This document shows positions 31,776 through 64,000 of a DNA stretch of 64,000 bases, one piece after another. The notes below the pieces were generated by a model. That model was not told the DNA's origin. It saw nothing but the letters and a program-made list of their open reading frames with translations, and did not search any database. A program made the translations under genes and the position numbers. Each line of letters starts with the position of its first letter. Position 1 is the stretch's first letter. This DNA is from Pseudoscleropodium purum (taxonomy: Eukaryota; Streptophyta; Bryopsida; Hypnales; Brachytheciaceae): the NCBI GenBank assembly GCA_963969395.1, contig OZ017796.1, forward strand, positions 42,894,243-42,958,242, in the 5' to 3' direction.

Positions 31776-33194
31776 GATGAGAAGATACAACGGAAGATTA
31801 TTCATGAGAGTAATGCCTATATGGACTACATTGATCCACAATCAAGAAAGCATAAAGGAGGTGTACTGCCATCTGCTCCAATAACAATCGGAGAGTATCG
31901 CCAATTCTGTGGGATCGTAATTCTCATGGGAATCAGGAAACAACCCAACATTAGGAACTATTGGCGGCGAGTTGGGAGTACTTTGCGATGTGATTCAATT
32001 GTGTAGACTACGAGTCGATTCATGATTATGTATATTCTCTAGTACTTGCACATGGTACCCAAAGGCTCCTACGTGACAAACAAGGTTGACCCTGCTTATG
32101 ACCCAATTGGGAAGTGTCGGTGGGTCTTGGAGGCATTGACAACAAATTTCAAAGCAAAGTAGAATCCACGTCATTACATCAGCATCGATGAGTGCATGAT
32201 TGGATACAACGGGAAATATTGTTCTTTCAAGCAATACATGCCACTGAAGCCTGTAACACATGGCATCAAATTGTGGATCTTGGCCGATAGTTCTACCAAG
32301 TTTGTGTGAAATATGGAAGTGTATGTGGGAGTAGAAGATGAACGTCGACATTGTCACGTGGAGCCTCCAGCAATGGGCATGGGAGTTGCAGTTGTCACAT
32401 GTCTCATTGTTGGCATGGAGGGGATGTTCTACTGAGTGGCGATAGACAAATTTTTTTCGCCAATGAAGCTCTTTGATGATTTGCTAAAGTGCGGCTTCTA
32501 TGCCATTGGAACAACACGACAACAACGCAAGGGTTTTCCTACGTCTTTGAACGTGACAAGTTAGGAAAGTTGAGGGACATTGCAGATACGTGTGCATCAA
32601 GACCACCAAATGGCAGCCATTCATTGGCAAGACATGAAGGGAGTACACTTCCTATCAACATCGGAAGATCCTATGGTCCAAGGGGGTGTCTCTGTTCTGC
32701 GCAATAAGGGTGTCCATTGACTACCAATACCAACTTCTGTAATCCAAATAGCTTATTCTGAGAACATGAGGGGCGAGGACATGAATGACCAACTAAAAGG
32801 CTCATATTCTATTCAAATCAACACCAAGTGGTGGCATTGTCTTTTTTTCTTTGCCATAGACATGGCATTGACAAATGCCTATGTGATCTACCAAGAATGT
32901 AGCGCAATGCACGGTGTCCGTCCAAAGAACCATCTGGACTTCCAATTGGAAATGGCTTATGCATTGATGGGACTACCAATTCCTGCAAGGTGCGATGGCT
33001 CAATAGAACCCATGCCACGACAATTGCAACTAATCACAATTCCGTGTTCTCGTGCAGGGCTTGCTCACACACCGCATTGAACGGAGTTGTGTCGAGTTTG
33101 CCTTCAGTGTCGAAAGTGGATTGCATACATATGTCGCCAATGTGGCAACAATTGATTGTATCCTATGTGTTGCTTTGATATTTACCATGAAGCC
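31776..33194 (+). pseudogene. piggyBac-type (DDE_Tnp_1_7) transposase pseudogene
   Basis: Plus-strand fragments follow the piggyBac transposase order. First comes an N-terminal piece with ITIGEYRQFCGIVILMGI and RNYW (31.85-31.97 kb). Next is DPAYDPIGKCRWVLEAL, then the first catalytic region ISIDECMIGYNGKYC (Asp codon 32187-32189) with FKQYMPLKP and GIKLWILADS. A second acidic site DKFFSP (Asp codon 32445-32447) is followed by LKCGFYAIGT, then MNDQLKGSYS...WWHCLFFFAIDMAL. Last is a C-terminal Cys-rich finger, CRVCLQCRKW...CRQCG...CCFDIYHE, at 33090-33194. At least six stops or frameshifts break it. Several stops are TAG/TGA at positions where related proteins have Trp, Gln or Arg. The cut-and-paste activity of the family is clearly lost here. 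I did not find the TTAA-flanked terminal repeats. Confidence 0.8.
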
Positions 33195-34592: not shown

Positions 34593-35002
34593 CTAACAAA
34601 ACTAAGTAAAAATCTGACATGATTTCATATGAACAACCATACTATAATCATCAATGCATGAAGTCCAAAATTAAATATAGAGAAGTTGTAGTGTGTGACA
34701 TACCACATATTACCAAGGAAGTTTGAAGAAAAAATAAATTGTGATTTGAAAAAAACAAACTTCAAAGTTAGCTATATCTAAAACCATGATGTGGAATTAC
34801 TTTATCTTTTTTCAATTTTTTCTTAAACTTCAAAAAAGATTTTTGTGCATTGGCATGTTGTTATATATCATTTTAGATTGTTGTACACAATAAATTAAAG
34901 GAAACTGACATTTACAGAAATTAAAATATCAACAATTTGACAAACATACAAATGTTGTCGGTTCTCACAATATTTTAATTTTGGAGGGGGAATTGAGAAC
35001 AT
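34593..35002 (+). repeat. Dispersed repeat, left half, interrupted by the Ty3 element
   Basis: This matches about 46690-47110 almost end to end with gaps, for example gaagttgtagtgtg.., accaaggaagtttgaagaaaaaat.. and caaatgttgtcggttctca. The match resumes at 41454 on the other side of the Ty3-type element, showing where the element landed. Confidence 0.8.
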
Positions 35003-35112
35003 TGTCGTGTAAAGAAAGATCGATAACCACAACAGATCGAGAGTCTCAACCAACATCAAACAAACGAAAAACATAGTCAAACACAACTATGCTAAGTATA
35101 CCCTTGAGACTA

Positions 35113-35486
35113 CGGAGACTACGGAGTTTGATGATTGGCCTTTGGAGGTAGGGCCACATCTTACCAGTGCCGAGGCACGAAGGGTGCGAGCGTTCATACA
35201 TTCGTATCGCAGCTGATTTGCCTTTAGTCTCCATGATTTGGAGGGCTATACAGGCAAACCTATTCACATTGAGTTGGAGGATGACCACCCGATCTTCCGA
35301 CGCCCGTACAAGCTCAGTCTTTCAGAGAAAGTTGGCATGCAGACTCGTTGTCAGGAGTTGTTGGCCACCAGCTTAATTGAGCTCTCTAACGGTGAATATG
35401 CTTGTGCCACAGTTATGCCATCAAAGAAGGATATCTTTGGCAATTGGACGGAGAAACGGATGTGTGGAGATTATAGACCGATCAAC
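35113..35486 (+). repeat. Inverted copy of the RT start, forming a hairpin with 35644-36022
   Basis: The plus strand encodes the same RT start as the minus strand at 35644-36022: EFDDWPLEVGPHLT, DDHPIFRRPYKLSLSEKVG, KRMCGDYRPIN. Differences are few (for example TGA instead of TGT after the IHSYRS-like stretch). The two arms of about 375 bp are separated by about 155 bp of RT sequence, so a transcript crossing it would fold into a long hairpin. Confidence 0.9.
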
Positions 35487-35487
35487 T

Positions 35488-36062
35488 CCCCAGAATGCAG
35501 TCTTCACTCGGTCATCCACCATCAATGGTAACTAATGATAACCAGACCGCAAATCTAGAGTACTAAATACTCTAGCGTGGCCCACCGCATCAAATAACTC
35601 CTCTGGCGTGGGCATGGGATATCAATCTGACTTGGTCTTGCGGTTGACCGGTCTATAATCTCCACACATCCGTTTCTCCGTCCAATTGCCAAAGATATCC
35701 TTCTTTGATGGCATAATTGTGGCACAAGCATATTCACCGTTAGAAAGCTCAATTAAGCTGGCGGCCAACAACTCCTGACAACGAGTCTGCATGCCAACTT
35801 TCTCTGAAAGATTGAGCTTGTACGGGCGTCGGAAGATCGGGTGGTCATCCTCCAACTCAATGTGAATAGGTTTGCCTCTATAGCCCTCCAAATCATGGAG
35901 ACTAAAGGCAAAACAGCTGCGATACAAACGTATGAACGCTCGCACCCTTCGTGCCTTGGCATTGGTAAGATGTGGCCCTACCTCCAAAGGCCAATCATCA
36001 AACTCCGTAGTCTCCTTCTCCACCGTAGAAGACTCACTGCGTACCGGCACGACCGATGATTG
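35488..36062 (-). pseudogene. Reverse transcriptase N-terminal part of the Ty3-type element
   Basis: Following an in-frame TAG at 36063-36065, the same frame continues into a Ty3-type RT start. It contains GKPIHIELEDDHPIFRRPYK, then QELLAASLIELSNGEYACAT, the MPSKKD and KRMCGDYRPVN strands, and after a TGA at 35622-35624 YPMPTPEELFDAVGHARVF, FSTLDLRSGYH. A TAG follows at 35532-35534, then LPLMVDDRVKTAFWG. The sequence stops being RT at about 35488, where it runs into the inverted copy. The YxDD catalytic strand and everything after it are absent. Confidence 0.85.
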
Positions 36063-36356
36063 CTACTTAGTAGCAGAGAGGGCATTCATGCCCCCAACCT
36101 TCTCACTCACGGGATCCACATAAAATCCCATATTGTGATGATAAAACCGAGAAAAGATATCCCCAGCATCCTCTCTACCAAAGTCCTCGGCCAAGGCTAC
36201 AAAGACACGCTGAGCACAAAGCTCTTCATCTACGTGCCTCTCCAAACGAAAAAGCAACTCCACTTCCTTGCTCTCTGTGAGATGTGGCACCGCTGCCCCC
36301 TGACCATCAGAGTCTGCCTCCAGCACGTGTGGCTGGTCACGTGAACGGTGCTGAAA

Positions 36357-37322
36357 GGCGAAATAGAGGCCACAAACCCAAACAAGAGTGTTAAGGTCAA
36401 TAGCTTGACCCAACAAATAACGACGTTGGCCCTCAGAGAGATCTGGTGCCGTAGTAGTGCCTGTCAAAAAGCCCATGGCCCGCTCCCTCTCATTGGCAGA
36501 AGGCTCCTCGTAAGTTTGAGAAGTAGAGTCCCAAACCATACCCGGACCGCGTGTCCTAAAGGCAAAAGACCCAGGGTAGCACATCAATGTGGGAAATGCC
36601 CCCCGTGTGAAACCAACGTGATTCACCACAGCCAAAGGTGGCTCATCATCCTTGGTAACCTCTATGGAAACACGATGGTCATCCAAGATGTCATCCACCT
36701 CACGCCGCACGGGTCGTTGCCCTTGTACAAGTGCAGAGGTGAGCGTTGCCGATGATGCCAAGTTGGTCCAAATCCAACGTGGCCGATGGGCGTAAGAGCC
36801 CAATGCCGCGGCATCAACATACGTGGGGGGACCAAGAAGGTGATGGATGTATGCCCCATCCTCACGCACCTTCGTCCGTGTATCCCCCAATGGAGGTACA
36901 TTCTCAAAAATGTACCCCGGTGGCATCGATTGGTGGATAATCCACCACTAGATGAGCCTAAGCAAATCCGCAAAGAGCCCCGACCGTGGATCATCCAAGC
37001 CACGTCCACTGCCCGCCCGTGAATGACCTTGGCAAGGCCATTCGGCAATCACCAAGTCCACATGACCCAATCGGCGAAGATCATCTTCACTAATCAAGGT
37101 CACATTACGTGGCAATTTACCAAAACACCCTCGAATCGCAGAAGGTGGTAACTGCTCTGGATACAACGCCAAAAGACGTTGGATGTGATGGTGAGCGGCA
37201 CGGTTGGCCGCAAAGCCACTATCCACATGAATGTACCGTCGTACTTTGAGCCCGGCTTCTAACACTACAGCTGGCCCTGTACCAATGCCAGCAAAGAGCT
37301 CCACGAGGGTAATATCCTCATC
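36357..37322 (-). pseudogene. DNMT3-like C5 cytosine DNA methyltransferase domain within the Ty3-type element
   Basis: The domain shows the C5-methyltransferase motifs in their normal, non-permuted order. Motif I is VELFAGIGTG (about 37307, AdoMet binding), followed by VRRYIHVD. DLVIAEWPCQGHSRAGSG is motif IV with the catalytic PCQ (about 37037). YIFENVPP is motif VI with the ENV glutamate. HRPRWIWTNL is motif VIII-like. ERERAMGF and YLLGQAIDLNTLVW are motifs IX-X. Spacing and the RYI, GRGLDDPRSGLF and ERERAMGF stretches resemble the DNMT3 branch. The domain is fused in frame between protease and RT, so it is element-encoded. An in-frame TAG (36948-36950) separates motif IV from VI, so this copy is not expected to make active enzyme. 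Precedent: charophyte and dinoflagellate retrotransposons with captured DNMTs. Confidence 0.88.
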
Positions 37323-37723
37323 TGGTGGACGCCACTGAATAGTGCGAGCCAACAACGGGGTAGAAGAATACTCTGAGTAATGCGAAACATCCAAAGCATC
37401 CACAATCTCTCGACTGCAGCGAGTGAGCTCCAATTGAGTCCCCCAAGGTGGAACCGGATCTTTGCAATGACGTGGAGGGATCTGTGGTGGTACATGCTCC
37501 CGTGATTCGACTACCCTTGACATAAAAGCATATGTCTCCTCTAGAAGCGTAGAACCACATGGCAAATTGGATGCCAAAGCGCTGCACCCAAACATAGCAT
37601 CCGCCGTAGGAGTCACTGTACTAGATGCGAAGACAACGGGGATGAGCTCCTTGCTGCCATCACCGGCAGACCACCCAGGCCTAATCCAAGCCTCCTCTGT
37701 CCAGTTATCCACCCCAAAGCCGA

Positions 37724-38090
37724 GTGGATAAAGTGCTTGCTGACCCACCCAAATGTCGTAGTTGGTGGCATTAGTCACAACGCACTGAAGAGAGACATGT
37801 GAAAACAATGGACCAGAGCCCACGCCAAACATCAACTGTAATGGATGTCGGGTGTACCCCATGGCCTTCTCCGTTCCCCCAACCGATGTGACAATTGTGA
37901 ATGGGCAAGGCTCGAGGTCTAAAGCACCTAGACCCAAATCTTGGGCTAACTGTTTGCCAATCATCACTGGCTGAGCCCCGGAATCCAACATAACACGTAG
38001 GGGGGTAGCTCGAGTGCGGTTGCCATCCGTACGGCCAACCACCATGACTCCATCATCATTCACCAAACGTATCACCCCTAGACGCACACT
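37724..38090 (-). pseudogene. Retropepsin-like aspartic protease domain of the Ty3-type element
   Basis: In the same frame, between Gag and the methyltransferase, VMLDSGAQPVMIGKQLAQDLGL carries the DSGA active-site signature of retroviral-type aspartic proteases. NYDIWVGQQALYPLGF follows about 75 residues later, like the family's ILG-D-L strand. A protease of this kind processes the Gag-Pol polyprotein. This part of the frame contains no stop. Confidence 0.8.
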
Positions 38091-38849
38091 ACGTCGCTCC
38101 CGTGCCGATCGGGCTGCAACATCAGACAAATAAGCCACTCCAGAGATCAAGGACTGATCCTTGGATGACTGCTCTATAGGTATGGAAGTGGCATTGGCCT
38201 CAAACACAGAAATAGCCTCCGCTGCCAACTTGGCCCGCATTGCCACCAAATCCTCCTCAATGGATGGAGCTGTCATTGCCTGTGACACCTCCAACGACGG
38301 AATGGGCACCTTGCCCTCCAACATACTACCCGCCAAGTGGAATACACCGGATGGTTGAAAATCCGGTGTGAGAAAGTCCACGCCAGCAAACACCGGCAAC
38401 TGCAACACCTTATACGCCAAGGTATGTGCAGCATCTCCACGACTAGAAGAAACCAGTGGGACCGGATTCAATGTGGGAGCGGCAGTAGAAGAAGCCGCAT
38501 CCGCGATGCTGAATGAAAGAGGTAGTCGGGACTGACCAATGTGGTTCGGCAAACCCACATGGCGTGAACGATTACTACTATTCGGCACAATGGAAGAGGG
38601 TGCCACCGCCTGTGCAATGGTCTGAGTATGAGTGGCAACTACTGCCACCACCTCCCCTGAAGCACCATACAAGTAGCGATCTAAGGCTAAAGATGAGCCT
38701 TGACCCCTCACCGCAGGCCGTGTGTCTGCCACTTGCCCCAAAGAAGCCATCGCGCTCATCTGCTTCTTTAGCGCCGCCAATTCGGCTTGAAGTGATTTCA
38801 CAGCCTCTGATCCGCCACCTGAAGACATCGGGCGCTTCTCAGGATGAAG

Positions 38850-40040
38850 AATGAAGCAATTCTCATCATTGTGGCCGAGCTTGCCACAATGAGAGCATGT
38901 CACAAGCTTCTTCCCCTTGCCCCCAGTCTTCTCCGCAGGTTTGGCCGCCTCGGTCTTGGGCTTGGCCTTCCCCGCCCCTACTCCCTTCTTTTTGGGACAA
39001 TTGGGGTCCCCTTTGGTGTGACCGGCCTCTCCACAAGCCCAGCAATACACAACCTTTTCAGGTTGTGCCTCCGCCAAACTACCTGTAGCTGTAGCAAGCT
39101 TCTTGGGCTTGGGAGCCTCTAAAAGCGACGTGACCAAGTTTGTAGCCTCGCTCATGCCTAATGCCCGGTCAAGCGATTCCACCTCGACGAACGCCTGAGC
39201 CAAGGTCGCGTTGCCGCCATATTGGAAGAGGAGGTGCGGGCTAATCAACTCAACCATCCGCTTGTTTAGCTTGGAGATAAAAATCTTCACAAGCTGACGT
39301 TCCGTGAACACATCACCAGCCTCTGTTGCCAACCGTAACAATCGAGTATACATAGTGCGTGGGGTATCCTCCTTCTCACGGCAGAAATCCTGGATGCGAT
39401 GCATCTGATCACGCCGAAAACCCCCATACTCCATCTCCAAATGCGCCAGAGGATTGAAGCGAGGCGGAGGACCGACTGCCTCCAATGCCGCCCATGTGGC
39501 TTGAGCCAAACGTGACATGGCCTCCAAGCCGGAACCCTCCTCATCCTTAGGCGAATCGCCAAAAGAAGGAGCTCGGGCAACCGCAGCCTCCTTGAGTGCA
39601 GTCACCAACTCCACACGATCGCGCCAATAGTCCTCAACTGAGCGCAATTCCTCTGCGTACAATGCAATCCACCTCCCGTATGTCTGAAGTGCCTCCAACT
39701 CCAAATGCTGTGGCAACAACTCAAATGCGTACTAGTCGTTGAACGACAATGTCCGCTGGCGCTTCTCTTTCATCCATGTCTGGAATCGGAGTTGCCAATC
39801 AGGCAAGGAGATACACCCAGCCCGTCCCGAGAACCTGTCTCGCACAATATGACGAAAATCATCCTCTATGTCGCCAAATGTGCCCATACTCCAAACTCGA
39901 AGCCTACGATCGGTATCCAACGCCGAAATAGGCTCAAAAGCCTCGTCGGTATCCGACCCTGGCCCAAAGTCTGCGGTGGAAACACTTTCCGGGTGGTCTG
40001 GTGAAGGGGAGCGGTAATACCGACTCCTGGTACTCACCAT
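38850..40040 (-). pseudogene. Gag region of the Ty3-type element
   Basis: The ATG at 40040 opens the frame (MVSTRSRYYRS). An in-frame TAG at 39732-39734 is followed by 4 codons and the long 923-codon open stretch from 39719. A retrotransposon-gag-like helical region (LEMEYGGFRRDQMHRIQDF, later TMYTRLLRLA and FISKLNKRMVELISPHLL) is followed by two zinc knuckles. The first is CWACGEAGHTKGDPNC, with six rather than four residues before the last Cys. The second is CSHCGKLGHNDENC, the standard CX2CX4HX4C. Gag packages the element RNA. The stop near the N-terminus would cut off the first about 100 residues unless translation restarts. Confidence 0.8.
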
Positions 40041-41453
40041 AAACAACAACCACCAAGGAAACTATCTACGGGTACTATCTAAAAGGTAAGGGTACGGACA
40101 GACAACCTGCACCTGCAAAATCACTAAGCTATGTGGATCACCGGTCATCACCTCCGGCTACCACAGGTCCAACCACAACCCCCCACGTAAAAAGGTCTTG
40201 TCGGCCATTAACCCGACTTCACCCCTACAGTACCCTATCACAATCTGGGACAACAAGAAATGGGGCCACCAGAAAACACCGGCAACAAGCCTGCAACACG
40301 GGGGAGGTACCGCACAAGAATCCAAAAATCAAAACCGGATCCTCTCCCCCAACAACATAAAAGCAGAATTGACAAAAGAATTAGAGCTACTAGCACGTGC
40401 CTGCAGTGGATAATCCCAAGTTGCAATATTTGCAAAGCAAGAGAAACACCAAAGATGTTCCCCAAATGTCTAAAACTAAGGAGGAGATGAAATCCTACAG
40501 TCGTGGTGTTCACAAACACTAATCCCCCATTACTTAGCAAAACAATGGGTGATAATGCGATAAAATGTCAATCCAACACTAGAATTGGATAAATGACGAG
40601 ATACTCAAACTATGGGCACAAATTTTACTCACAAACAAGTAAAATTGCCCTCACAAACTACCTCCAAAGTTTGACACTAAACTTTTTTTTTTTTTTTTCC
40701 AAACCACTTACAGTGTGAACACGGCTAAAATGAAACTGGTTCAGAAAATAACTCGAACCACTTACAGTGTGAACGCACTATCGGATGGATGAAAAATTGA
40801 AAACGGATGAAAAATTGCGGCGGATGAAAAATCGTTGCGGATGAGACTGCGAGAACTCCAGCAACTCCAGCAACTCCAGCAACTCCAGAACTTCTTTCTC
40901 CACAACTTCTTTCTCCACAACTTCGAATCTTCACAACTTCTCCAAAAATCGTTCGATTTGAGCGCCGTCGGTGGCGTTGGCTCCGTCTCCGCGCGCTCTA
41001 TAACAAAATCTAAACTACGCACAATTTTTTTTTGAATCACTCAATATCAAATTTGAGAACTATTGCAAGAAATGTGGGAGGGTCTTTGTCAAGTGAATAT
41101 GTTGCAAATCACAAGAGTAGTCAAGCGGCACGCACTCCACAAAGGAAGAATCAACGAGTGTAAAAAGTATGAGAGAATGCGGAGCCTTTACTAATGACAA
41201 ACAATCACTTACAAGCAATGGCAATCACTAACACTCTCTAACTCACTCACAAAGCTTGACTTGACAAAGACGTCAAGTCAAGAACATGTGTGCCACTATA
41301 CACACACACACACAAAACCCTAACGGATTAAACTCATCCGTAGAATGAATGAGGTGTGTCGGCCGCACGTCCCACACACACGTAGATTAGCAACAACTAA
41401 TTTACGCTAAAACACTACAATGTGGAGAGGCCCCCGATGCCACCTCCCGTGAC
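40041..41453 (-). other. 5' leader and presumed LTR region of the Ty3-type element
   Basis: Non-coding DNA upstream of the gag ATG. It contains a poly-T run (40682-40699), repeated cggatgaaaaat units (40795-40845), tandem caactccag units and a twofold aacttctttctccac unit (40856-40925), and a CA run near 41300. The outer end on the minus strand reads TGTCACGGGAGG, an LTR-like start. Without a second LTR the inner border and primer-binding site cannot be fixed. Confidence 0.5.
40856..40925. repeat. Short tandem repeats (caactccag and aacttctttctccac units)
   Basis: About four 9-bp caactccag units are followed by two 15-bp aacttctttctccac units inside the leader/LTR region of the Ty3-type element. 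Such short arrays are common in LTR promoters; no function can be read from sequence. Confidence 0.8.
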
Positions 41454-41680
41454 AACATGGTATAGCATTAGCCATTGTAGAAAAAGTATATGTTGCAATA
41501 TAGACCATTATTATATTTTAGTGCCCTTGCAATTGAAATATTTGTTGAAACAAACAATATATTTTATTTTATATTTTATATCTATAAAATGGATTTTTAG
41601 GTTCAATTTTTTGGATGAAGACTATAGTTCATGATGCACATAATTGATCCAAAAAATCCAAAATAAATAAATTATTATTG
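41454..41680 (+). repeat. Dispersed repeat, right half, interrupted by the Ty3 element
   Basis: This matches about 47108-47330: ggcattagccattgta, accattattac.., atatttgttgaa, catgatgcacataattgatcc. It continues the repeat that stops at 35002. Confidence 0.8.
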
Positions 41681-46689: not shown

Positions 46690-47330
46690 AACTCAGTACA
46701 AATTTGAAACATTTTTATTCAAGCAACCATACCATAAGCATCAATGGATAAAGTTCAAAGATGATTGTATATGTATATATATATATATATAAGTTGTAGT
46801 GTGCATTATACTACACATTACCATGGAAGTTTGAAGAAAAAATTAGTTGTGACTTGAAAGCAAATGAATTTCAAAGTTAGTCATGTCTTAAACTCAATTT
46901 CATTCAACATGATTTAGAATACTTTATCTTTTGTCAATTTTTCTTAGAATTACAAAAAAAAAGTTTTTTGTTCTTTAACATGTTTTTATACATCATTTCA
47001 AAATGTTGTACATAAAGATTGAAGGAAATTGACATTTATCAAAATTGAAATATCAATAGTTTGACAACCATTCAAATGATGTTGGTTCTCAAAATACTTG
47101 GAATTGAGAGCATGGGATGGCATTAGCCATTGTATAGAGAGTATAGGGTGCAATGTGGACCATTATTACATCTCAATACCCTTGCATTTTAAATATTTGT
47201 TGAATTGGATAATGTATTCAATTTATGTTATACAATCATATAATGCATTTTTAAGTTCAAGGTTTTTGTCCAAAGACTAGAGTACATGATGCACATAATT
47301 GATCCAATAAATCCAAAGAAAATTACATTG
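46690..47330 (+). repeat. Dispersed repeat, uninterrupted copy (empty site of the Ty3 element)
   Basis: About 640 bp matching 34593-35002 plus 41454-41680 joined. At the join the sequence reads gagagcatgggatggcattagcc with no insert. A TA run at 46771-46791 is internal. No coding capacity was seen. Confidence 0.8.
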
Positions 47331-48373: not shown

Positions 48374-48703
48374 CACTATAACAAAACATGGTAAAAAAAA
48401 CCGCACTCAAAATTGAGTGTTGTTTTTTTACCACCTTTTTGTGTAGATCCACTACGTGCACAGTTAGCTTCTTTTGCAATTTTTCATAGCATTTTTTAGA
48501 ATTTTGAACCACATAATATATCATTTAAAAGTTCTTAAAAATTACCTTTCCAATGGTATATTACTTGGTCCAAAATCCTAAAAATTGCAGTGAAAATTTG
48601 CAAAAGAAGATGAAGGCCCACTATGCATGCATGCACAAAAACATGGTAAAAAGAACCACACTCAATTGTGAGTGTGGTTTTTTTACCATGTTTTGTTATA
48701 GTG
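48374..48703. mobile_element. 330-bp CACTA-ended foldback MITE with 3-bp TSD (aat)
   Basis: The termini are inverted: CACTATAACAAAACATGG at the left, its complement at the right end, continuing for roughly 45 bp with few mismatches. The 3-bp aat at 48371-48373 repeats at 48704-48706. A CACTA terminus with a 3-bp duplication is characteristic of CACTA (En/Spm) transposons. Each terminal region is itself a hairpin: 48390-48432 (arms ggtaaaaaaa / tttttttacc around CACTCAAAATTGAGTG) and 48642-48690 (arms starting catggtaaaaa). No coding sequence is present, so it would need a transposase in trans. Confidence 0.85.
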
Positions 48704-54563: not shown

Positions 54564-54745
54564 CTGTGACCACTTGTATCGGCTGCCAGCCGACACTAGC
54601 TGAAGAAGACCATTTTTTGTTTTTTTTATCTATAACCACTTGTATCGGCTGCTAGCCGACACCAGCTGAAGAAGACCATTTTTTGTTTTTTATCTGTGAC
54701 CACTTGTATCGGCTGCCAGCCGACACCAGCAGAAGAAGACCTTTC
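54564..54745 (+). repeat. Three 64-66 bp tandem units with internal hairpin, just before copia gag
   Basis: Units start at 54564, 54630 and 54694, each with accacttgtatcggctg followed by ccagccgaca. The CGGCTG-C-CAGCCG palindrome in each unit would form a short stem. A poly-T run precedes the array. The gag ATG follows 35 bp after the last unit. Confidence 0.88.
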
Positions 54746-54779
54746 CAGTGAAATCCAACACAATGGAAGCTGCGTCACC

Positions 54780-57700
54780 ATGGCATCCAGTGGAAGAGAG
54801 GGCGTGCGCATCATCGACAAGTTTGATGGAGAGAACTTTGGCATGTGGAAGTTCAAGATGGAGATGATCCTTGCGGAAAAGGACTTGTGGGACGTGGTGG
54901 ATGGGAGTGAGGAGCCTCCAAGTGAAGATGCGGATCCAAAGACCAAGAAGGCATGGGAGAGGAAGGAGAAGAAGGCCTTTGCTCTCATTGCCATCAACCT
55001 TGTAGATCACCAAATTACACACATTTGCCATTGCAAGGGACCAGCCCAAGCGTGGACCACCCTTTGCAACATCCATGAGACCAAGAGCCTCTCCAACCTC
55101 CTATTTCTTCGCCGCAAGTTCTTCACTAGCAAGATGCAAGAGGAGGACGATTTGTTGGATCACGTCAACAAGGTCAAGGCTCTTGCGGATGAGTTGGCTT
55201 GTTTGGAGGCGCCCGTGACCGAGGGAGATGTGGTGATGACCTTGTTGGCAAGCTTGCCATCGTCTTATGAGTTCCTCATCACCGCATAGAGACGAGGCCC
55301 ACCAAGGAACTGACCATGGAGTTTGTGACCGCACGCTTGATGCATGAAGTGACCAAACGCAAGGAGAATGAGGCCCAAGAGGAGGGATCAGCGCTTGTCT
55401 CAAGACATGAAAAAGGTGGCAACACCAAGGCGTCCAAGGAGACAAGGACGTGCTTCAAGTGTGGTAAACCGGGCCACATTGCTAGGCATTGTAAGATCAG
55501 CCAAGGCAAGGACAAGGCGAGTGCACACCCAGCTTCCAAAGAGGAGGAAGAAGAGGGTTTTGCCTTTGCAGCCAATGGAAGAGGGGAGAAGGCCAACATG
55601 TTCACTTGGATTGTGGACTCGGGGGCCATGCAACATATGACCAACCATCAAGATGCCTTCCACACGTATCAGCCCATTTCGGGGAAGAAGATTTATTTGG
55701 GAGACAATGGCATGGTGGAGGCCCTTGGCATGGGGGAGATCCTTGTAGAGGTGCAAGTGAAGGGGAAGACCAGGAGGATCCAAATCCAAGAGGTGCTCCA
55801 TGTCCCCAAGTTGCATGCCAACTTGCTTTCGGTGAGCAAATTGTCTTTGGGAGGTTTAAAAGTACATTTCAACATGGTGGGGTGTGTGGTGCGTTCACCA
55901 AGTGGAGTTTTGATTGCATCAGCCCCTCGTGAGGGCAACTTGTACCACCTCCATTTCACCAAGGTGAATGGCACTTCCTTGGCGTGTATTGTCCAAGGAT
56001 CAACCCATGAAGACCTTGTGGAGCTTTGGCATAGGAGGCTTGGGCACTTGAATGTGAAGAGCATGAAGAGCCTCCAACACATGATGAAGGGTCTGAACCT
56101 CTCTTCTTGCAAGCATGATTAGAGTTCTATGGTGTGCAAGGGGTGCATTGAGGGCAAACAAGCGAGGCAGCCCTTCCTCAAGGATGGGGCAACGCGCGCC
56201 ACCAAGCCATTGCAGCTTGTGCATTCGGATGTGTGCGGGCCAATGAAGACCACGTCCATAGGAGGAGCAAGGTATTTTGTGACCTTCATTGATGATTTCT
56301 CTCGCAAGATTTGGGGGTATATGCTGAAGTGCAAAAGTGAGGTGTTTGGGCGTTTTGAGACTTGGAAGGCCCTCGTGGAGGCTCAATCGGATTGCAAAGT
56401 GAAGGTGCTACGGTCGGATAATGGAGGGGAGTATGTGTCCAAGGCCTTTGAGGCGTACTTGAAGGCCCATGGCATTGAGCACCACACTTCCGCACCCTAC
56501 ACCCCTCAACAAAACGGCGTAGCGGAGCGTGCGAATCGTACCATTGTGGAGATGGCAAGGGCCATGATTTATGGCCAAGGTTTGAAGCTTGAGCTTTGGG
56601 GGGAGGCGGTGTCCACTGCGGTTTACACGAGGAACCGGTGCCCCACCCAAGCGTTGACAAGCAAGACACCGCAAGAAGCTTGGAGTGGGACAAGGCCCCA
56701 CGTGTCTCACATGCGCACCTTTGGGTGCATTGCCTATGCATTGGTCCCAAGTGCCAAGAGGACGAAATTGGATCCCAAGGGCATCAAGTGCCTTTTCCTT
56801 GGTTATTGTGAGGGAACCAAGGCTTATAGGCTGATGAATGTGGAGACCAAGGCCATCCTCAAGTGCCGAGATGTGACCTTTTTGGAGGATGGAGGAGCTG
56901 ATTCCAAGCTCTTGGAGATGAGCCCAAGTGGGAGAAGTGGAGGACCAGCCCAAAAGATGGGCACAACTCCAAGAGTGCACATAGAAGATGGAGATGAAGA
57001 TGAAGAGCAAGGTACTGAAGATGAGGACTTTGTGGAGCCCAAGAAGAAGGTGACCACACCTCAAGTAAAGAGATCAGCGGCGGCTTCTCCAAGCACTTCA
57101 CCAAGGGAGCAAGAGCATGATCAGCCCTTGGAGGAGCAAGATCAGCCCATTGGTGAGGAAGATCAAGGCACGGAGGAGCCACGTTATCCAACGAGGACCC
57201 GCAAGCCCCCTGGAGATTGGTGGCTGAATCACATTCTTCCCAAACAACAAGAAGAACAAGCCAATGTGGCTTTCCTTGGAGATCCATCCACGCTTGGAGA
57301 GGTGTTGCGTTGTGAAGATGCAAGCAAGTGGGAGGTGACCATGCAAGAGGAGTACAAGGCCCTCATTGACAAAGGGACATGGGAGCTTGCAGCCCTCCCT
57401 CCCAAGAGATCAAGTGTGAGTTGTAAGTGGGTTTTCTCTACCAAAAGGGATGCTTTGGGTTACATTGTGAGGTACAAGGCAAGGTTGGTTGCTAGGGGGT
57501 TTTCCCAAGTGGAAGGGGAGGAGGTCATCTACATGGATCAACCCCAAGGCTTTGTACAAGAAGGCCAAAAGCATTTGAAGTGCAAGTTGAAGAAGGCACT
57601 CCCCGGGTTGAAGCAATTGGGGAGAGTTTGGGATCGAGATATTGATGGCATGTTTGTGAGGAAAGGGTTTCGAAGGAGGCCATTTGGCTAAGGTAGCTCT

Positions 57701-59744: not shown

Positions 59745-62700
59745 TCATTGGCTTGAATTTTCCAAAGATAGCTTCCATTTTGTAAAACACTCAAGGCACA
59801 AATCATAGCCAATTCTAAAAGTAGCCTTTGCCTTTACACGAGGCCCAATTATAGGGATCACTTTGCATCTATCACACTGCACTCTAGCATGATAATTACC
59901 TTTAAGACAAAAAAATTTGCCTTCAAGACTAGCCAAAGAAGTTGGTGAAGATGACTCAACCAACATATAGGGTTCCAAGTTTGGACAATTCTCCCAAGAA
60001 AGAGTTTGTATTGAAGATATGCATCCCAAATTCTTTGGTAAAGAATTTAGCAAAACACAACCATCCAAATTGAGTTCAACCAAATGGTATAATTTTTCCA
60101 TTTCCTCTGGTAATGTTGCCAAGTGTGAACACTCACTTAGATTGAGAGTGGTCAAAGAAGACAAGTTCCCCACTTCCTTTGGCAAGGCCGCCAAGCTCAA
60201 ACATCTCCATAAATCAAAAGTGGTCAAGGAAGACAAATTCCCCACTTCCTTGGGCAAGGCTACCAAGTTTGAACATCCACCCAATTTGAGAGTGGTCAAG
60301 GAAGCTAAGTTCCCCACTTCTTTGGGCAAGGCCACCAAACTTGAACATCTACCCAATTTGAGAGTAGTCAAGGAAGACAAGTTCCCTACTTCCTTTGGCA
60401 ACACGACTAAGCTCGAACATCCATCCAATTTGAGAGTGGACAAGGAAGACAAATTCCCCACTTCTTTTGGCAAGGCCACCAAGCTTGAACAACCCCACAA
60501 ATCAAAAGTGGTCAAGAAAGACAAGTTCCCCATTTCCTTTGGCAAGGCTACCAAACTCAAACATCTCCGTAAATCAAGAGTGGACAAGGAAGACAGGTTT
60601 CCCACTTCCTTTGGCAAGGTCGCCAAGCTTAAACACTTACTTAGATTGAGAATGTTCAAAGAAGACAAGTTCCCTACTTCTTTGGGCAAGGCCAATAAGC
60701 TTACACATTCACTTAGATTAAGAATGGTTAAGGAAGACAAGTTCCTCACTTCTTTTGGTAAGGCCACCAAGCTTGAACAACCCCACAAATCAAGAGTGGT
60801 CAAGGAAGACAAGTTACCTACTTCCTTCGGCAAGGCCACCAAGCTTAAACATTCACTTAGATTGAGAGTAGTCAAGGTAGACAAATTCTCCACTTCTTTC
60901 GGCAAGGTCACCAAGCTTGAACAACCCCGCAAGTCAAGAGTGGTCAAGGAAGATAAATTTCTCACTTCCTTTGGCAAGACCACCAAGCTTAAAAATTTAT
61001 ATAGATTTAGAGTGGTCAAGGAAAACAAGTTCCACATTTCTTTCGGCAAGGTCACCAAGCTTGAACAACCCCACAAATCAAGAGTGGTCAAAGAAGACAA
61101 GTTCCCCACTTCCTTTGGCAAGGCCTCCAAGCTTGAACATCCACCAAATTTGAGAGAGGTCAAAGAAGACAAATTCCCCACTTCCTTTGGCAAGGCCACC
61201 AACCTTGAACACTTCCACAAACCAAAAGTGGTCAAGGAAGACAAATTCCCTATTTCCTCAGGCAAGGTCGCCAAGCTTATACACCTCCCTAAATCAAGAG
61301 TAGTCAAGGAAGACAAATTCCCTACTTCCTTTGGCAAGGCCGCCAAGCTTGAACATTCACTTAGATTGAGAGTGGTCAAAGAAGACAAGTTCCCCACTTC
61401 CTTCGGCAAGGCCACCAAACTTGAACATTCACTTAGATTGAAAGTGGTCAAAGAAGACAAGTTCCCCACTTCCTTTGGCAAGGCCACCAAACTTGAACAA
61501 CCCCACAAATCGAGAGTGGTCAAGAAAGACAAGTTCCCTACTTTCTTCGGCAAGGACATCAAGCTTGAACAACCCCACAAATCAATAGTAGTCAAGGAAG
61601 ACAAGTTCCCCACTTCCTTCGGTATGGTGGTCAAGCTTGAACACTCACTTAGATTGAGAGTGGTCAAGGAAAACAAGTTCTCCACTTCCTTTGGCAAGAC
61701 CGCCAAGCTTGAACATCCATCCAATTTGAGAATGGACAAGGAAGACAAATTCCCCACTTCTTTCGGCAAGGCCACTAAGCTTGAACAACCCCACAAATCA
61801 AGAGTGGTTAAGGAAGACAAGTTCCCCACTTCTTTTGGCAAGCCCGCCAAGCTCATACATCTTCGTAAATTAAGAGTGGTCAAGGAAGTCAAGCTCCCCA
61901 CTTCCTTCGGCAAGGTCACCAAGCTAAAACACTTACTTAGATTGAGAGTGGTCAAAGAAGACAAGTTCCCCACTTCTTTGGGCAAGGTCAACAAGCTTGA
62001 ACATTCACTTAGATTGAGAGTTGTCAAGGAAGACAAGGTCCCCACTTCATTTGGTAAGGCTACCAAGTGAAAACAAAAACTGAAATTGAGACTCAATAAA
62101 CTTTGGCTTGATGCAAATTTGTTAGGGAAGTGTTGAAGGAAGCCAAGCCCTACTAGATGTAGAATTTTTAGTGATGCATGAGTACCACAAAGATCTAATA
62201 TTCTCTCCCTCAAAGTAATTGTAGTACCCACTGGAAGTGTATCTGGCAATCTAATCCAATCTGGAGAGTTTCCTATTATAATTGCCTCCAATTGGGAACA
62301 TTGTGAAGCTACTTGAAGTAATAAACCCAAGTTGTCCAGATGTTCTTTAGGACTACCTATAGAGGTCACCAAAATCATCACACGAAGTTTTTGAAAATCA
62401 AAACACTTGTCTTGTTGAACAATATTTTCTTGCCCAAAAATGCCTTCATGAACCTCAAAATCCGATCGAACCTCAAAGTCATGTTGAACAATAGTTCCTT
62501 GCCAAGAAATGCCTTCAAGAACTTCAACATCCTGTAGTCAAAAAAATTCTTATTAGAACATATTACCTCATCATTAAGTGGCTTCAAATGAAAATTAACT
62601 TTTTTCTAACATATTTGAAAACTTGATTACAATTTGTAGAGTAATATAGGTTCAAATGTTTGTAAATTACATTCAAAATTATATTACAAAACATGACCAC

Positions 62701-64000
62701 TTTCCCACTTGCACTATTATATTAATACCTTGCTTGTAAATCCACTTTCTGGAATCATGGATGCCTTCCAAACTCTTGAATCTTTGGCAATCATTCGACC
62801 CATGTCACGAAGTTGGTCATGCATTTCTAGAATGTCACCATCTTCATTCACCTTCAACAAGGACATGTCAATCAATCTTTCTAATTTGTCCACTGGAAGG
62901 ATGCCATCTTTGGACCACATGTCCAAAATCATCGCCTTTGATATGCCAGATGGATAAACATCCCGACAAAAGAAACAAGCCACATCCAAAAACATATTCT
63001 TTTCAACACCATTGTTCAATTCATCGTAGCTTATTTTCAAGGTGTTCCAAATTTCTTCATCACCATCCAAATTCCTTCCTCTTGCCATCCTTTGTAAAGC
63101 TCGTTCCCAACTTCGCAACCTCTCTTTAGTGCGGAGAAATGAACCCATCACTTTCAAGCTCAAAGGCAAGCCATTGCAAGCTTTTACAACATGCTTGCGT
63201 AAGACCTCAAAGTCCGGTGATAAAGAACCAACACCCCAAGAAAGGTGAGTGGTGAAAAGTGTTGTTGCTGCCCTTTCATCCAACAATTCAACATCCAACT
63301 TTCCCTCAACACTCACAAATGATTCTATTGTGCTCCATTTGCGTGTTGTAAAAATTATTATAGTCCCTTTGCTAGCTTGCACAATGCTAGGAGGCACAAT
63401 ATCACGAACTTGAGCTTCATCTTTAACATCATCTAGTATTAAAAGAACCTTGTTTCCAACTAAGAGTTCTTTTATCATCATTTGGGCATCTTCCATATTC
63501 TTGGGTTTCTTATCATTCTCAAGTTTGGAAAATATCTTGCACAATATCTCATATGAACTTTGATAGTTTTTGCAGTGCGCAACAAAGCATGATGCATGAT
63601 ATAAGGATTTCACTTTCGTGTCATCAAATATTGCCTTTGCTAGTGTGGTCTTGCCAATTCCACCCATGCCAACAATTCCTACATAGTTCATTGTCAAAAG
63701 CTTTTTGGCTTTAGACAATTGATGTTCCAGATCAACCAAAACTTCCTTTGGAGATGCAAGTCCCTCATTCACCTGCATAAATACAAAAGTCATATTTACA
63801 GAATCATTTTCTCATATAAATAAAACACTTATATTGAAACTACAAATGCTAAATATCAAAGGGAATTACAACAAATAAACATCACTACATGACTATTCGA
63901 GTTTAGTAATTTCGTACCTTTTGCACATGGTCTATGATGGATATGGAATCTTCTAAGCTGTAGGGTGAGCCAAATTGTGGAACCATCTCACGTGAATATG
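59745..64000 (-). CDS. NLR disease-resistance protein (NB-ARC-LRR with C-terminal ZZ-like finger), 5' end outside window
   Basis: Three exons are visible: 64000-63918 (partial), 63772-62729 and 62531-59745, with GT-AG borders in phase 0. Exon two holds the NB-ARC switch: P-loop GMGGIGKTTLAKAIF, kinase-2 VLLILDDVKD, RNBS-B GTIIIFTTRKW, GLPL CNGLPLSLKVMGSF, RNBS-D-like MFLDVACFF and MHDQLRDMGR. LDDV and the RNBS-D form fit the TIR-NLR class, but the N-terminal domain lies beyond 64000. Exon three has a linker with a small internal duplication, 28-29 near-identical 24-residue LRRs (62069-59982), and a Cys-rich tail resembling a ZZ zinc finger. NLRs are cytosolic or nuclear immune receptors that bind ADP/ATP through NB-ARC and sense pathogen effectors. 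No break was seen. Confidence 0.9.
59784..59891 (-). other. Degenerate ZZ-type zinc-finger-like domain at the NLR C-terminus
   Basis: About 35 residues reading HARVQCDRCKVIPIIGPR followed by GYDLCLECF. The ZZ-finger hallmarks CDxC, PIxGxR and YDLCxxCF are present. The middle Cys pair normally after the Arg-Tyr is missing (KAKATFRI instead), and so are the two distal His. One zinc site (CDRC with CLEC) could still form. ZZ fingers bind protein N-termini or histone tails. The role here is unknown. Confidence 0.7.
59982..62069 (-). repeat. 72-bp tandem coding repeat (28-29 leucine-rich repeats)
   Basis: The NLR's LRR block consists of consecutive 24-codon units of the form SL.ALPKEVGNLSSLTTL.L..CS. 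The first and last units are more divergent (HLVALPNEVG, LLNSLPKNLG). The exact 72-nt period is kept through about 2.1 kb with no indel seen. The variable positions are mainly the residues after TTL, the solvent-exposed strand positions. The repeat also leaves a long antisense frame open. Confidence 0.93.

What the first reader, a model, noticed from the sequence alone, without database searches (positions are those of the whole stretch)
36357..40040. Ty3-type retrotransposon of a land plant with a built-in DNMT3-like cytosine methyltransferase
One reading frame links Gag (two zinc knuckles), a DSGA protease, a full set of C5-methyltransferase motifs (FAGIGTG, PCQ, ENV, ERERAMGF, LLGQAIDLN) and a Ty3-type RT start. 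Retrotransposons with captured DNMTs have been described from charophyte algae (Klebsormidium) and dinoflagellates, with de novo CpG methylation shown for some. An element of this type in a land plant would extend the phenomenon. It raises the idea that the element methylates its own DNA copies, either to hide or to limit damage. This copy is inactive, but its 923-codon intact stretch suggests recent relatives.
Basis: partly seen in the sequence, partly recalled or inferred. Interest (0 to 1): 0.92.

Follow-up and report, generated by a model that had tools for sequence, protein, structure and literature searches.

The report
Moss-like jumping gene encoding DNA methyltransferase
The stretch is a damaged copy of a virus-like jumping gene that carries its own DNA-methylating enzyme; the family sits at about a hundred places in this plant genome, and relatives occur in named mosses, liverworts and green algae, whereas the published green-plant case we found came from one alga.

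Summary
Window 35003-41454 (minus strand) is one dead copy of a Ty3/Gypsy retrotransposon: gag, protease, DNMT3-type C5-methyltransferase, UAG, RT. Less damaged copies add RNase H, DDE integrase and a PHD finger.

The methyltransferase belongs to the element: it matches at about 100 loci in this 313-Mb genome, and 63 of the 65 nearest RT loci have it upstream on the same strand. The only in-frame stop shared by all 11 aligned copies is that UAG, in leaky context, so it is probably programmed.

Repeats are split (A1-body-B1-A2-B2), as published for Klebsormidium; 4-bp target duplications point to integrase insertion. Variants shared between copies look purified in the methyltransferase (pN/pS 0.31, singletons 0.95), as in RT.

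Relatives occur in Marchantia, Calypogeia, Sphagnum, Closterium, Klebsormidium and Haematococcus; host DNMT3 and DRM fall outside them, though the node uniting the elements is weak. A 2019 paper calls methylase transposons absent from "land plants, such as tracheophytes".

Activity and target are not shown. The copies' CG/CHG-rich C-to-T load is also seen in a copia family without the enzyme. Methylating its own new DNA is the likely role (inferred).

The parts
35003..41454 (-). whole element copy (internally deleted), termini TGTC...GACA
41455..41458 (.). target-site duplication, 5' side (ATGT on the element strand)
34999..35002 (.). target-site duplication, 3' side
41098..41454 (-). repeat A1 (about 357 bp; left terminal repeat; inner edge good to a few bases)
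41082..41094 (-). putative primer-binding stretch just inside A1, complementary over 13 nt to 41259-41271 inside A1 (possible self-priming; inferred)
36066..40040 (-). ORF1: gag - protease - methyltransferase - tail; copy-specific TAG at 39732-39734 and 36948-36950
38997..39044 (-). first CCHC zinc knuckle
   Evidence: motif by eye
38856..38897 (-). second CCHC zinc knuckle
   Evidence: motif by eye
37863..38006 (-). aspartic protease match (DSGA at 37971-37991)
36357..37319 (-). DNMT3-type C5-methyltransferase domain, motifs I-IV-VI-VIII-IX-X in unrearranged order
   Evidence: fold from a sister copy
36063..36065 (-). UAG stop in CAAUCA context, in 11 of 11 aligned copies; probable readthrough site between MTase and RT
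35487..36062 (-). start of RT (Ty3 type), truncated, with two further stops
   Evidence: domain call from a family B copy
35114..35486 (+). inverted duplicate of 35643-36015 (foldback); the rest of pol, B1 and A2 are absent
35003..35108 (-). repeat B2 (right terminal repeat)
46780..47317 (+). uninterrupted paralogue of the target repeat (empty-site comparison, 77% identity to the joined flanks)

Best explanation
Shown from sequence: the finding is one defective copy of a multi-family Ty3/Gypsy retrotransposon lineage. It encodes gag-PR-MTase as ORF1 and, after a conserved UAG, RT-RH-IN-PHD as ORF2, has A1-body-B1-A2-B2 repeats and inserts with 4-bp duplications. The methyltransferase is DNMT3-type, and shared variants suggest purifying selection while the element was spreading. 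Inferred: the UAG is leaky, so gag, PR and MTase are made in excess over RT and IN and packed together. The enzyme then methylates the element's new DNA, as cDNA in the particle or soon after insertion. That could make the copy look like settled host DNA, or damp its own damage. The PHD finger on the integrase would read host chromatin at the target. Confidence below is for identity and architecture; for self-methylation as the selected role I would say 0.4.
For: Domains in sister copies. Nearest solved relatives and nearest folds are DNMT3A/B. Motif order unrearranged, unlike the host genes that look like DRM. Motif conservation in 124 element sequences (those of 197 that passed a length filter; gaps left out): Cys 112 of 116, Glu 122 of 122, two Arg 108 of 115 each. 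UAG in 11 of 11 family A copies while no other stop is in more than 4; UAG-CAA also in 2 of 2 family B copies read. MTase upstream of RT in 63 of 65 loci. TSD exact in 6 of 8 copies and in the window copy, 1 mismatch in 2. pN/pS in the MTase: shared 0.31, singletons 0.95, Fisher p 0.0098; RT-RH 0.29 and 0.75, p 0.0045 (9 copies). Empty site.
Against: No activity, transcript or methylome data were available. KnitGypsy-Dnmt3 gave no methylation in yeast (inconclusive). The C-to-T spectrum of the copies (CG 0.44, CHG 0.40, CHH 0.13 per site) does not single out the element's enzyme: a copia family without MTase shows the same ordering (0.19, 0.14, 0.06). The selection contrast rests on 33 shared MTase variants in 9 copies treated as independent; it is not significant for gag (p 0.09), PR (0.71) or IN-PHD (0.24), and with all 11 copies RT-RH weakens to 0.40 versus 0.66 while MTase stays at 0.33 versus 0.93. 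Readthrough is judged from context only. The split repeats are not the canonical LTR layout.
Confidence: 0.9

Rival explanations
1. A host DNMT gene into which, or next to which, the element happened to insert.
For: In this copy the frame is broken, and the host does have DNMT3-like genes.
Against: About 100 dispersed loci; MTase within 1 kb upstream of RT in 57 of 65 RT loci and upstream within 12 kb in 63 of 65; the domain is intronless, whereas the host DNMT3-like genes are split; host DNMT3 and DRM fall outside the element MTases; sharp element ends with TSD.
Confidence: 0.02
2. The domain is kept for something other than DNA methylation: RNA methylation, cDNA or RNA binding, or a structural role in the particle.
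For: It sits in ORF1 with gag, before the stop, so it is probably made in gag-like amounts; KnitGypsy-Dnmt3 was silent in yeast; Closterium rows and the Haematococcus row have E-C-Q instead of P-C-Q, although copies of this genome have P-C-Q (10 of 10 family A copies with letters).
Against: Catalytic Cys kept in 112 of 116 rows and Glu in 122 of 122; best relatives are DNMT3A/B; DNMT2-type RNA enzymes score far lower.
Confidence: 0.2
3. The enzyme acts on host chromatin at the insertion site together with the PHD finger (reader plus writer), steering or silencing neighbouring DNA rather than marking the cDNA.
For: A PHD finger follows the integrase in a family B copy and, by eye, in family A frames; precomputed Pfam lists PHD in 10 of the 75 proteins.
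Against: MTase and PHD are on different sides of the UAG; no insertion-site chromatin data.
Confidence: 0.2
4. Several captures of DNMT3-like genes by green-plant Gypsy elements, or sideways movement between hosts, rather than one old capture kept by descent.
For: In five unnamed proteins of the Haematococcus-containing clade RT comes before the MTase, in streptophytes after it. The node uniting all element MTases is weak, 75/66. Sphagnum P0108 falls among liverworts (100/100), away from this genome's families, and Klebsormidium groups with Closterium (91/77), so the tree does not simply follow the hosts. de Mendoza et al. describe an independent acquisition in the K. nitens lineage.
Against: Host DNMT3 and DRM of this genome fall outside all element MTases; the RT tree shows the same three main groups, though it has no Klebsormidium, Haematococcus or Sphagnum sequence.
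Confidence: 0.3

Closest known systems
KnitGypsy-Dnmt3 of Klebsormidium nitens (de Mendoza et al. 2018, PMC5890265)
   Same: Gypsy pol with an unrearranged DNMT3 domain and repeats arranged as in DIRS elements (section 9); K. nitens proteins P0100, P0110 and P0138 group with the streptophyte element MTases. That these three are that very element is my inference.
   Different: host here is a land plant (inferred); a conserved UAG between MTase and RT, a PHD finger and 4-bp TSDs are seen here, and the paper's main text has no 'PHD' or 'readthrough' and uses 'TSD' only for the LINE elements
SymbioDIRS-Dnmt3 (same paper)
   Same: DNMT3 domain in a retrotransposon polyprotein, split repeats (section 6)
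   Different: DIRS with tyrosine recombinase; here Ty3 RT and a DDE integrase; de novo CG activity shown for SymbioDIRS
Plant DNMT3 / DRM / MET1 host genes
   Same: C5-methyltransferase domain
   Different: host genes of this genome have introns (L034-L036) or permuted order (L031, L032); two DNMT3 and one DRM sampled lie outside the element MTases; names of the genes are by recalled resemblance
RIRE2-type rice Gypsy with candidate stop-codon readthrough (named in PMC2754532, passages read)
   Same: candidate readthrough in a plant Gypsy
   Different: position and context were not compared here

Membership tests
Ty3/Gypsy LTR retrotransposon | RT and RNase H of Ty3 type followed by integrase (RT-RH-IN order) | tested here: met
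   RVT_1 5.8e-28, RT_RNaseH 9e-39, H2C2 7e-6, rve 6e-13 in family B copy L030
Ty3/Gypsy LTR retrotransposon | TG...CA termini and short target duplication | tested here: met
   start TGTC in 7 of 8 and end GACA in 7 of 8 copies; 4-bp TSD exact in 6 of 8, 1 mismatch in 2; window copy exact
Ty3/Gypsy LTR retrotransposon | two full terminal repeats (LTR-body-LTR) | tested here: not met
   A1-body-B1-A2-B2 in 8 of 8 copies with both A repeats; the pol is Gypsy, the repeat layout is not canonical
DIRS/PAT/Ngaro | split direct repeats | tested here: met
DIRS/PAT/Ngaro | tyrosine recombinase and no target duplication | tested here: not met
   DDE integrase and 4-bp TSD
KnitGypsy-Dnmt3 type | Gypsy pol plus DNMT3 domain plus DIRS-like repeats | tested here: met
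   against the description
KnitGypsy-Dnmt3 type | common descent of the MTase domain | tested here: met
   K. nitens P0100/P0110/P0138 group with Closterium (91/77) in the streptophyte element clade (91/98)
DNMT3 methyltransferase | sequence and fold nearest to DNMT3, unrearranged motif order | tested here: met
DNMT3 methyltransferase | de novo cytosine methylation | not testable with these tools
   needs an enzyme assay
DRM | permuted motif order (VI-X before I-IV) | tested here: not met
   against host DRM-like genes
Chromovirus (Gypsy with chromodomain) | chromodomain after integrase | tested here: not met
   PHD finger; no chromodomain among the Pfam hits of the L030 frame, which ends soon after the PHD finger

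The most novel reading that the evidence does not exclude
A Ty3/Gypsy lineage took up a DNMT3-type enzyme once, in an early green plant before chlorophytes and streptophytes parted, and has kept it into living bryophytes. Such an element carries a DNA-methylation writer and, on its integrase, a PHD histone reader. It also meters MTase against RT with a leaky UAG, so it brings its own epigenetic kit to each new copy.
Probability: 0.3. Interest if true: 0.85.

Novelty: new member of a known kind. Interest (0 to 1): 0.68.

Why it matters
DNMT-bearing retrotransposons were published from dinoflagellates and one charophyte (PMC5890265). [quoted passage not shown] it has no mention of 'bryophyte' or 'Marchantia'). 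About 100 loci in one bryophyte-like genome, with relatives in Marchantia, Calypogeia and Sphagnum, show that they did not vanish on land as a whole. Marchantia is genetically tractable (recalled), so the open question of what a retrotransposon gains from its own methyltransferase becomes testable in a land plant. The selection contrast and the conserved stop suggest that the enzyme mattered to elements that spread.

Tried and rejected
Host-gene capture by chance: rejected. All stops as decay: rejected for the UAG at 36063. Ordinary LTR-body-LTR layout: not seen in 8 of 8 copies. A DIRS element: rejected (integrase, TSD). DRM origin: rejected by motif order. Mutation spectrum as proof of self-methylation: rejected because the copia control behaves alike. 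Searching the C-terminal half of the MTase of this copy alone against PDB gave only chance matches. Covariation of the putative self-priming helix in family B could not be tested: the A2 sequence of one B copy was not found at a 5' end in either B copy read. Age in years is not given, because fast C-to-T decay makes repeat divergence (A1/A2 2.2-5.2%) a poor clock. No tRNA gene in the window. The two RT loci without an MTase match (C48:15243727, C40:15412025) could not be read. The species could not be named.

Full report
What is there. The element lies on the minus strand. Frame 36948-39731 (927 aa) carries two CCHC knuckles, a DSGA protease motif and methyltransferase motifs I and IV; frame 36063-36947 carries motifs VI-X; frame 35622-36062 begins RT. 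Pfam gives DNA_methylase 2e-6 for the first half in this copy and 6e-12 when the domain is unbroken in a sister copy. Element ends were found from sister copies: 35003 and 41454, flanked by the same 4 bp. The joined flanks match an uninterrupted paralogous repeat at about 46780-47317 at 77%, with gaps elsewhere but none at the junction, which confirms the boundaries independently.

The damage. This copy has two stops of its own in ORF1 (39732, 36948). A 373-nt foldback (97% complementary) is followed directly by B2; most of pol, B1 and A2 are absent. Because the ends and the target duplication are intact, the simplest reading is that an aberrant cDNA, formed by strand switching, was integrated as such (inference).

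The family. A search of the same genome (G000, 313 Mb) with the 294-aa C-terminal half gave 134 matches (133 of 149 first-look candidates scored, so a lower bound). They merge to 100 loci: 32 at 75% identity or more, 57 at 40-74%, 11 lower. Besides the window copy I read 10 of the 31 other loci of the first class in 20-kb stretches (family A; mostly the best-scoring ones) and two loci of family B, the intact-looking group near 48% identity. Eight of the ten A copies have both A repeats. An RT search gave 70 matches (the best 67 of 1095 first-look candidates were scored, so only the nearest RTs). Merging five second pieces leaves 65 loci; 63 have an MTase match upstream on the same strand within 12 kb, 57 within 1 kb, and two have none.

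Architecture. Taken together, copies read A1 - gag - PR - MTase - UAG - RT - RH - IN - PHD - G-rich run - B1 - A2 - B2. A1/A2 are about 360 bp and 94.8-97.8% alike; B1/B2 are about 106 bp and differ at 1-7 positions. The unit starts TGTC in 7 of 8 copies (TATC in one) and ends GACA in 7 of 8 (AACA in one). The 4-bp duplication is exact in 6 of 8, has one mismatch in 2 of 8, and is exact in the window copy. The inner B1-A2 junction reads GACA-NN-TGTC in 8 of 8, that is, the two outer ends joined with two extra bases, as for ends before integrase trimming (my reading). de Mendoza et al. report DIRS-like repeats with Gypsy domains for K. nitens (section 9 read). Thirteen nucleotides just after A1 are complementary to a stretch inside A1 in 6 of 9 copies (12 nt in one, 10 in one, broken in one; 3 of 2000 shuffles of the 40-nt stretch reach 12). 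This would fit self-priming as in Tf1 (recalled), but the inner stretch is itself part of an inverted repeat, so I hold it lightly.

The programmed stop. In the aligned coding region of 11 copies the only stop in all 11 is UAG at 36063-36065; every other stop is in at most 4. Its 3' context is CAAUCA in 11 of 11 and CAACCA in both B copies. Both fit CARYYA, the leaky context known from tobamoviruses (recalled, not from a call). Candidate readthrough in rice Gypsy elements, with RIRE2 as reference, is mentioned in PMC2754532 (passages read). So MTase would be made with gag and PR, and pol in smaller amount (inferred).

The enzyme. A profile of 25 ORF1 proteins and one of 7 diverse MTase domains both hit DNMT3A/B/C best (2.9e-19; 7.3e-24), with DRM and HhaI far behind. 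An AlphaFold2 model of one open copy (41 sequences, mean pLDDT 83) matches DNMT3A/B best (Foldseek 1.4e-15, TM 0.81 on the target). Of 197 sequences, 124 element sequences passed a length filter. In these the catalytic Cys is kept in 112 of 116 rows with a letter, the Glu of ENV in 122 of 122, the two Arg of the AHRxR motif in 108 of 115 each. All 16 Closterium rows with a letter and the Haematococcus row have Glu before the Cys. Among the 11 family A copies, WPCQG is kept in 10 of 10 with letters, FENV in 11 of 11, AHRPR in 8 of 11.

Selection. In 9 family A copies (the divergent C44 copy and the window copy left out; codons with fewer than 6 copies and multiple changes dropped), variants seen in one copy only have pN/pS 0.95 in the MTase (29 synonymous, 83 others); variants shared by two or more have 0.31 (17, 16); Fisher p 0.0098. 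RT-RH: 0.75 and 0.29, p 0.0045. gag p 0.09, PR 0.71, IN-PHD 0.24. With all 11 copies MTase is 0.93 versus 0.33 and RT-RH 0.66 versus 0.40. So the MTase appears constrained about as strongly as RT while the element spread, with near-neutral decay afterwards; the counts are modest and not independent of copy relatedness.

Methylation footprints. In the same 9 copies 818 of 951 single-copy changes are C>T/G>A; rates per site are CG 296/678, CHG 213/534, CHH 309/2452, against 43/3471 for A/T transitions. A copia family of this window, 6 copies, no MTase seen in its frames: 67 of 84, with CG 17/90, CHG 7/50, CHH 43/687, A/T 3/731. Both look methylated in plant fashion. The CG and CHG excess over CHH is somewhat larger in family A in two matched 6-copy sets, but the copia counts are small, so nothing can be credited to the element's own enzyme.

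Relatives. A first search with the MTase region gave 43 proteins: Marchantia polymorpha (7), Calypogeia fissa (1), Closterium (8), 27 without organism name. A second from a Closterium protein gave 35, with Haematococcus lacustris and PHD-bearing unnamed proteins. A third with A2 gave 242 (120 listed), with three K. nitens proteins and one of Sphagnum troendelagicum. All 75 proteins of the first two searches match the domain, some in part. In an IQ-TREE of 37 sequences (30 element MTases of more than 120 available, 3 unnamed outliers, 4 DNMT3/DRM; rooted on the unnamed P0191) the streptophyte elements group (91/98), with a land-plant group within them (96/95), Klebsormidium with Closterium (91/77), and the Haematococcus-containing group outside (87/93). 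Host DNMT3 and DRM of this genome fall outside. The node joining all elements is 75/66, or 98/99 with the unnamed P0190 added. The tree does not simply follow the hosts: Sphagnum sits with the liverworts (100/100), away from this genome's families A and B, and Klebsormidium beside Closterium. The RT tree (19 sequences, midpoint-rooted, no Klebsormidium, Haematococcus or Sphagnum) has the same three main groups. In five unnamed proteins of the Haematococcus-containing clade (P0062, P0069, P0070, P0072, P0073) RT comes before the MTase; in this genome, Marchantia P0026 and Closterium P0036 it comes after.

Host. The record is unnamed. It has genes that look like DRM (rearranged), MET1, and intron-bearing unrearranged DNMT3 (names by recalled resemblance). 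DRM is restricted to streptophytes (PMC12344493, section 5 read). With NLR-like and SHAQKYF-MYB-like frames in the window (names recalled) and matches on 11 contigs, nine of known length 12.7-48 Mb, I infer a bryophyte, probably a moss.

Literature. Ten paper searches were run; three found nothing. No listed title or abstract start reports DNMT-bearing retrotransposons in bryophytes, nor do the passages read in six papers besides PMC5890265. PMC12344493 (section 5) cites de Mendoza et al. for such elements in streptophytes and dinoflagellates. PMC6338049 says they are not present in land plants, such as tracheophytes. The library holds open-licence papers only, and the supplements were not searched, so an unseen report is possible; the Marchantia proteins are in public databases under other names.

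Verdict. Observation confirmed and interpretation supported. It is a new, land-plant member of the KnitGypsy-Dnmt3 kind, with a probable leaky stop and an integrase PHD finger. What the enzyme does remains to be measured.

Noticed in passing
window 54636-57691 (+): Copia-type element; the genome has at least 124 matches to its integrase/RT part, many with long open frames. Used here as a control.
   Followed up: partly
window 59745-63811 (-): NLR-like frame (P-loop GMGGIGKTTLAK) followed by a long array of similar LRR units (LPKEVGNLSSLTTLNLSECSSL).
   Followed up: no
window 32721-33080 (+): Fragment that looks like a piggyBac-type transposase (recalled resemblance), unusual for a plant.
   Followed up: no
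window 35114-36015: 97% foldback inside an element with intact ends and TSD, suggesting integration of an aberrant self-copied cDNA.
   Followed up: partly
protein P0078: A 'Candidatus Obscuribacterales' MAG protein is 77% identical to the family A MTase; probably plant DNA in a bacterial bin.
   Followed up: no
Closterium and Haematococcus MTases: Motif IV reads W-E-C-Q instead of W-P-C-Q in most Closterium rows; all 16 with a letter there have Glu before the Cys column; unusual for C5-methyltransferases (recalled).
   Followed up: partly
G000 C47:8953218 and C47:9091136: Two family B copies 138 kb apart give the same scores in MTase, PF00145 and RT searches, which suggests a segmental duplication.
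   Followed up: no
window 48383-48701: Two copies of a 64-nt repeat, each with an internal hairpin around GGTAAAAA...TTTTTACC (hairpin by eye); perhaps a MITE.
   Followed up: no
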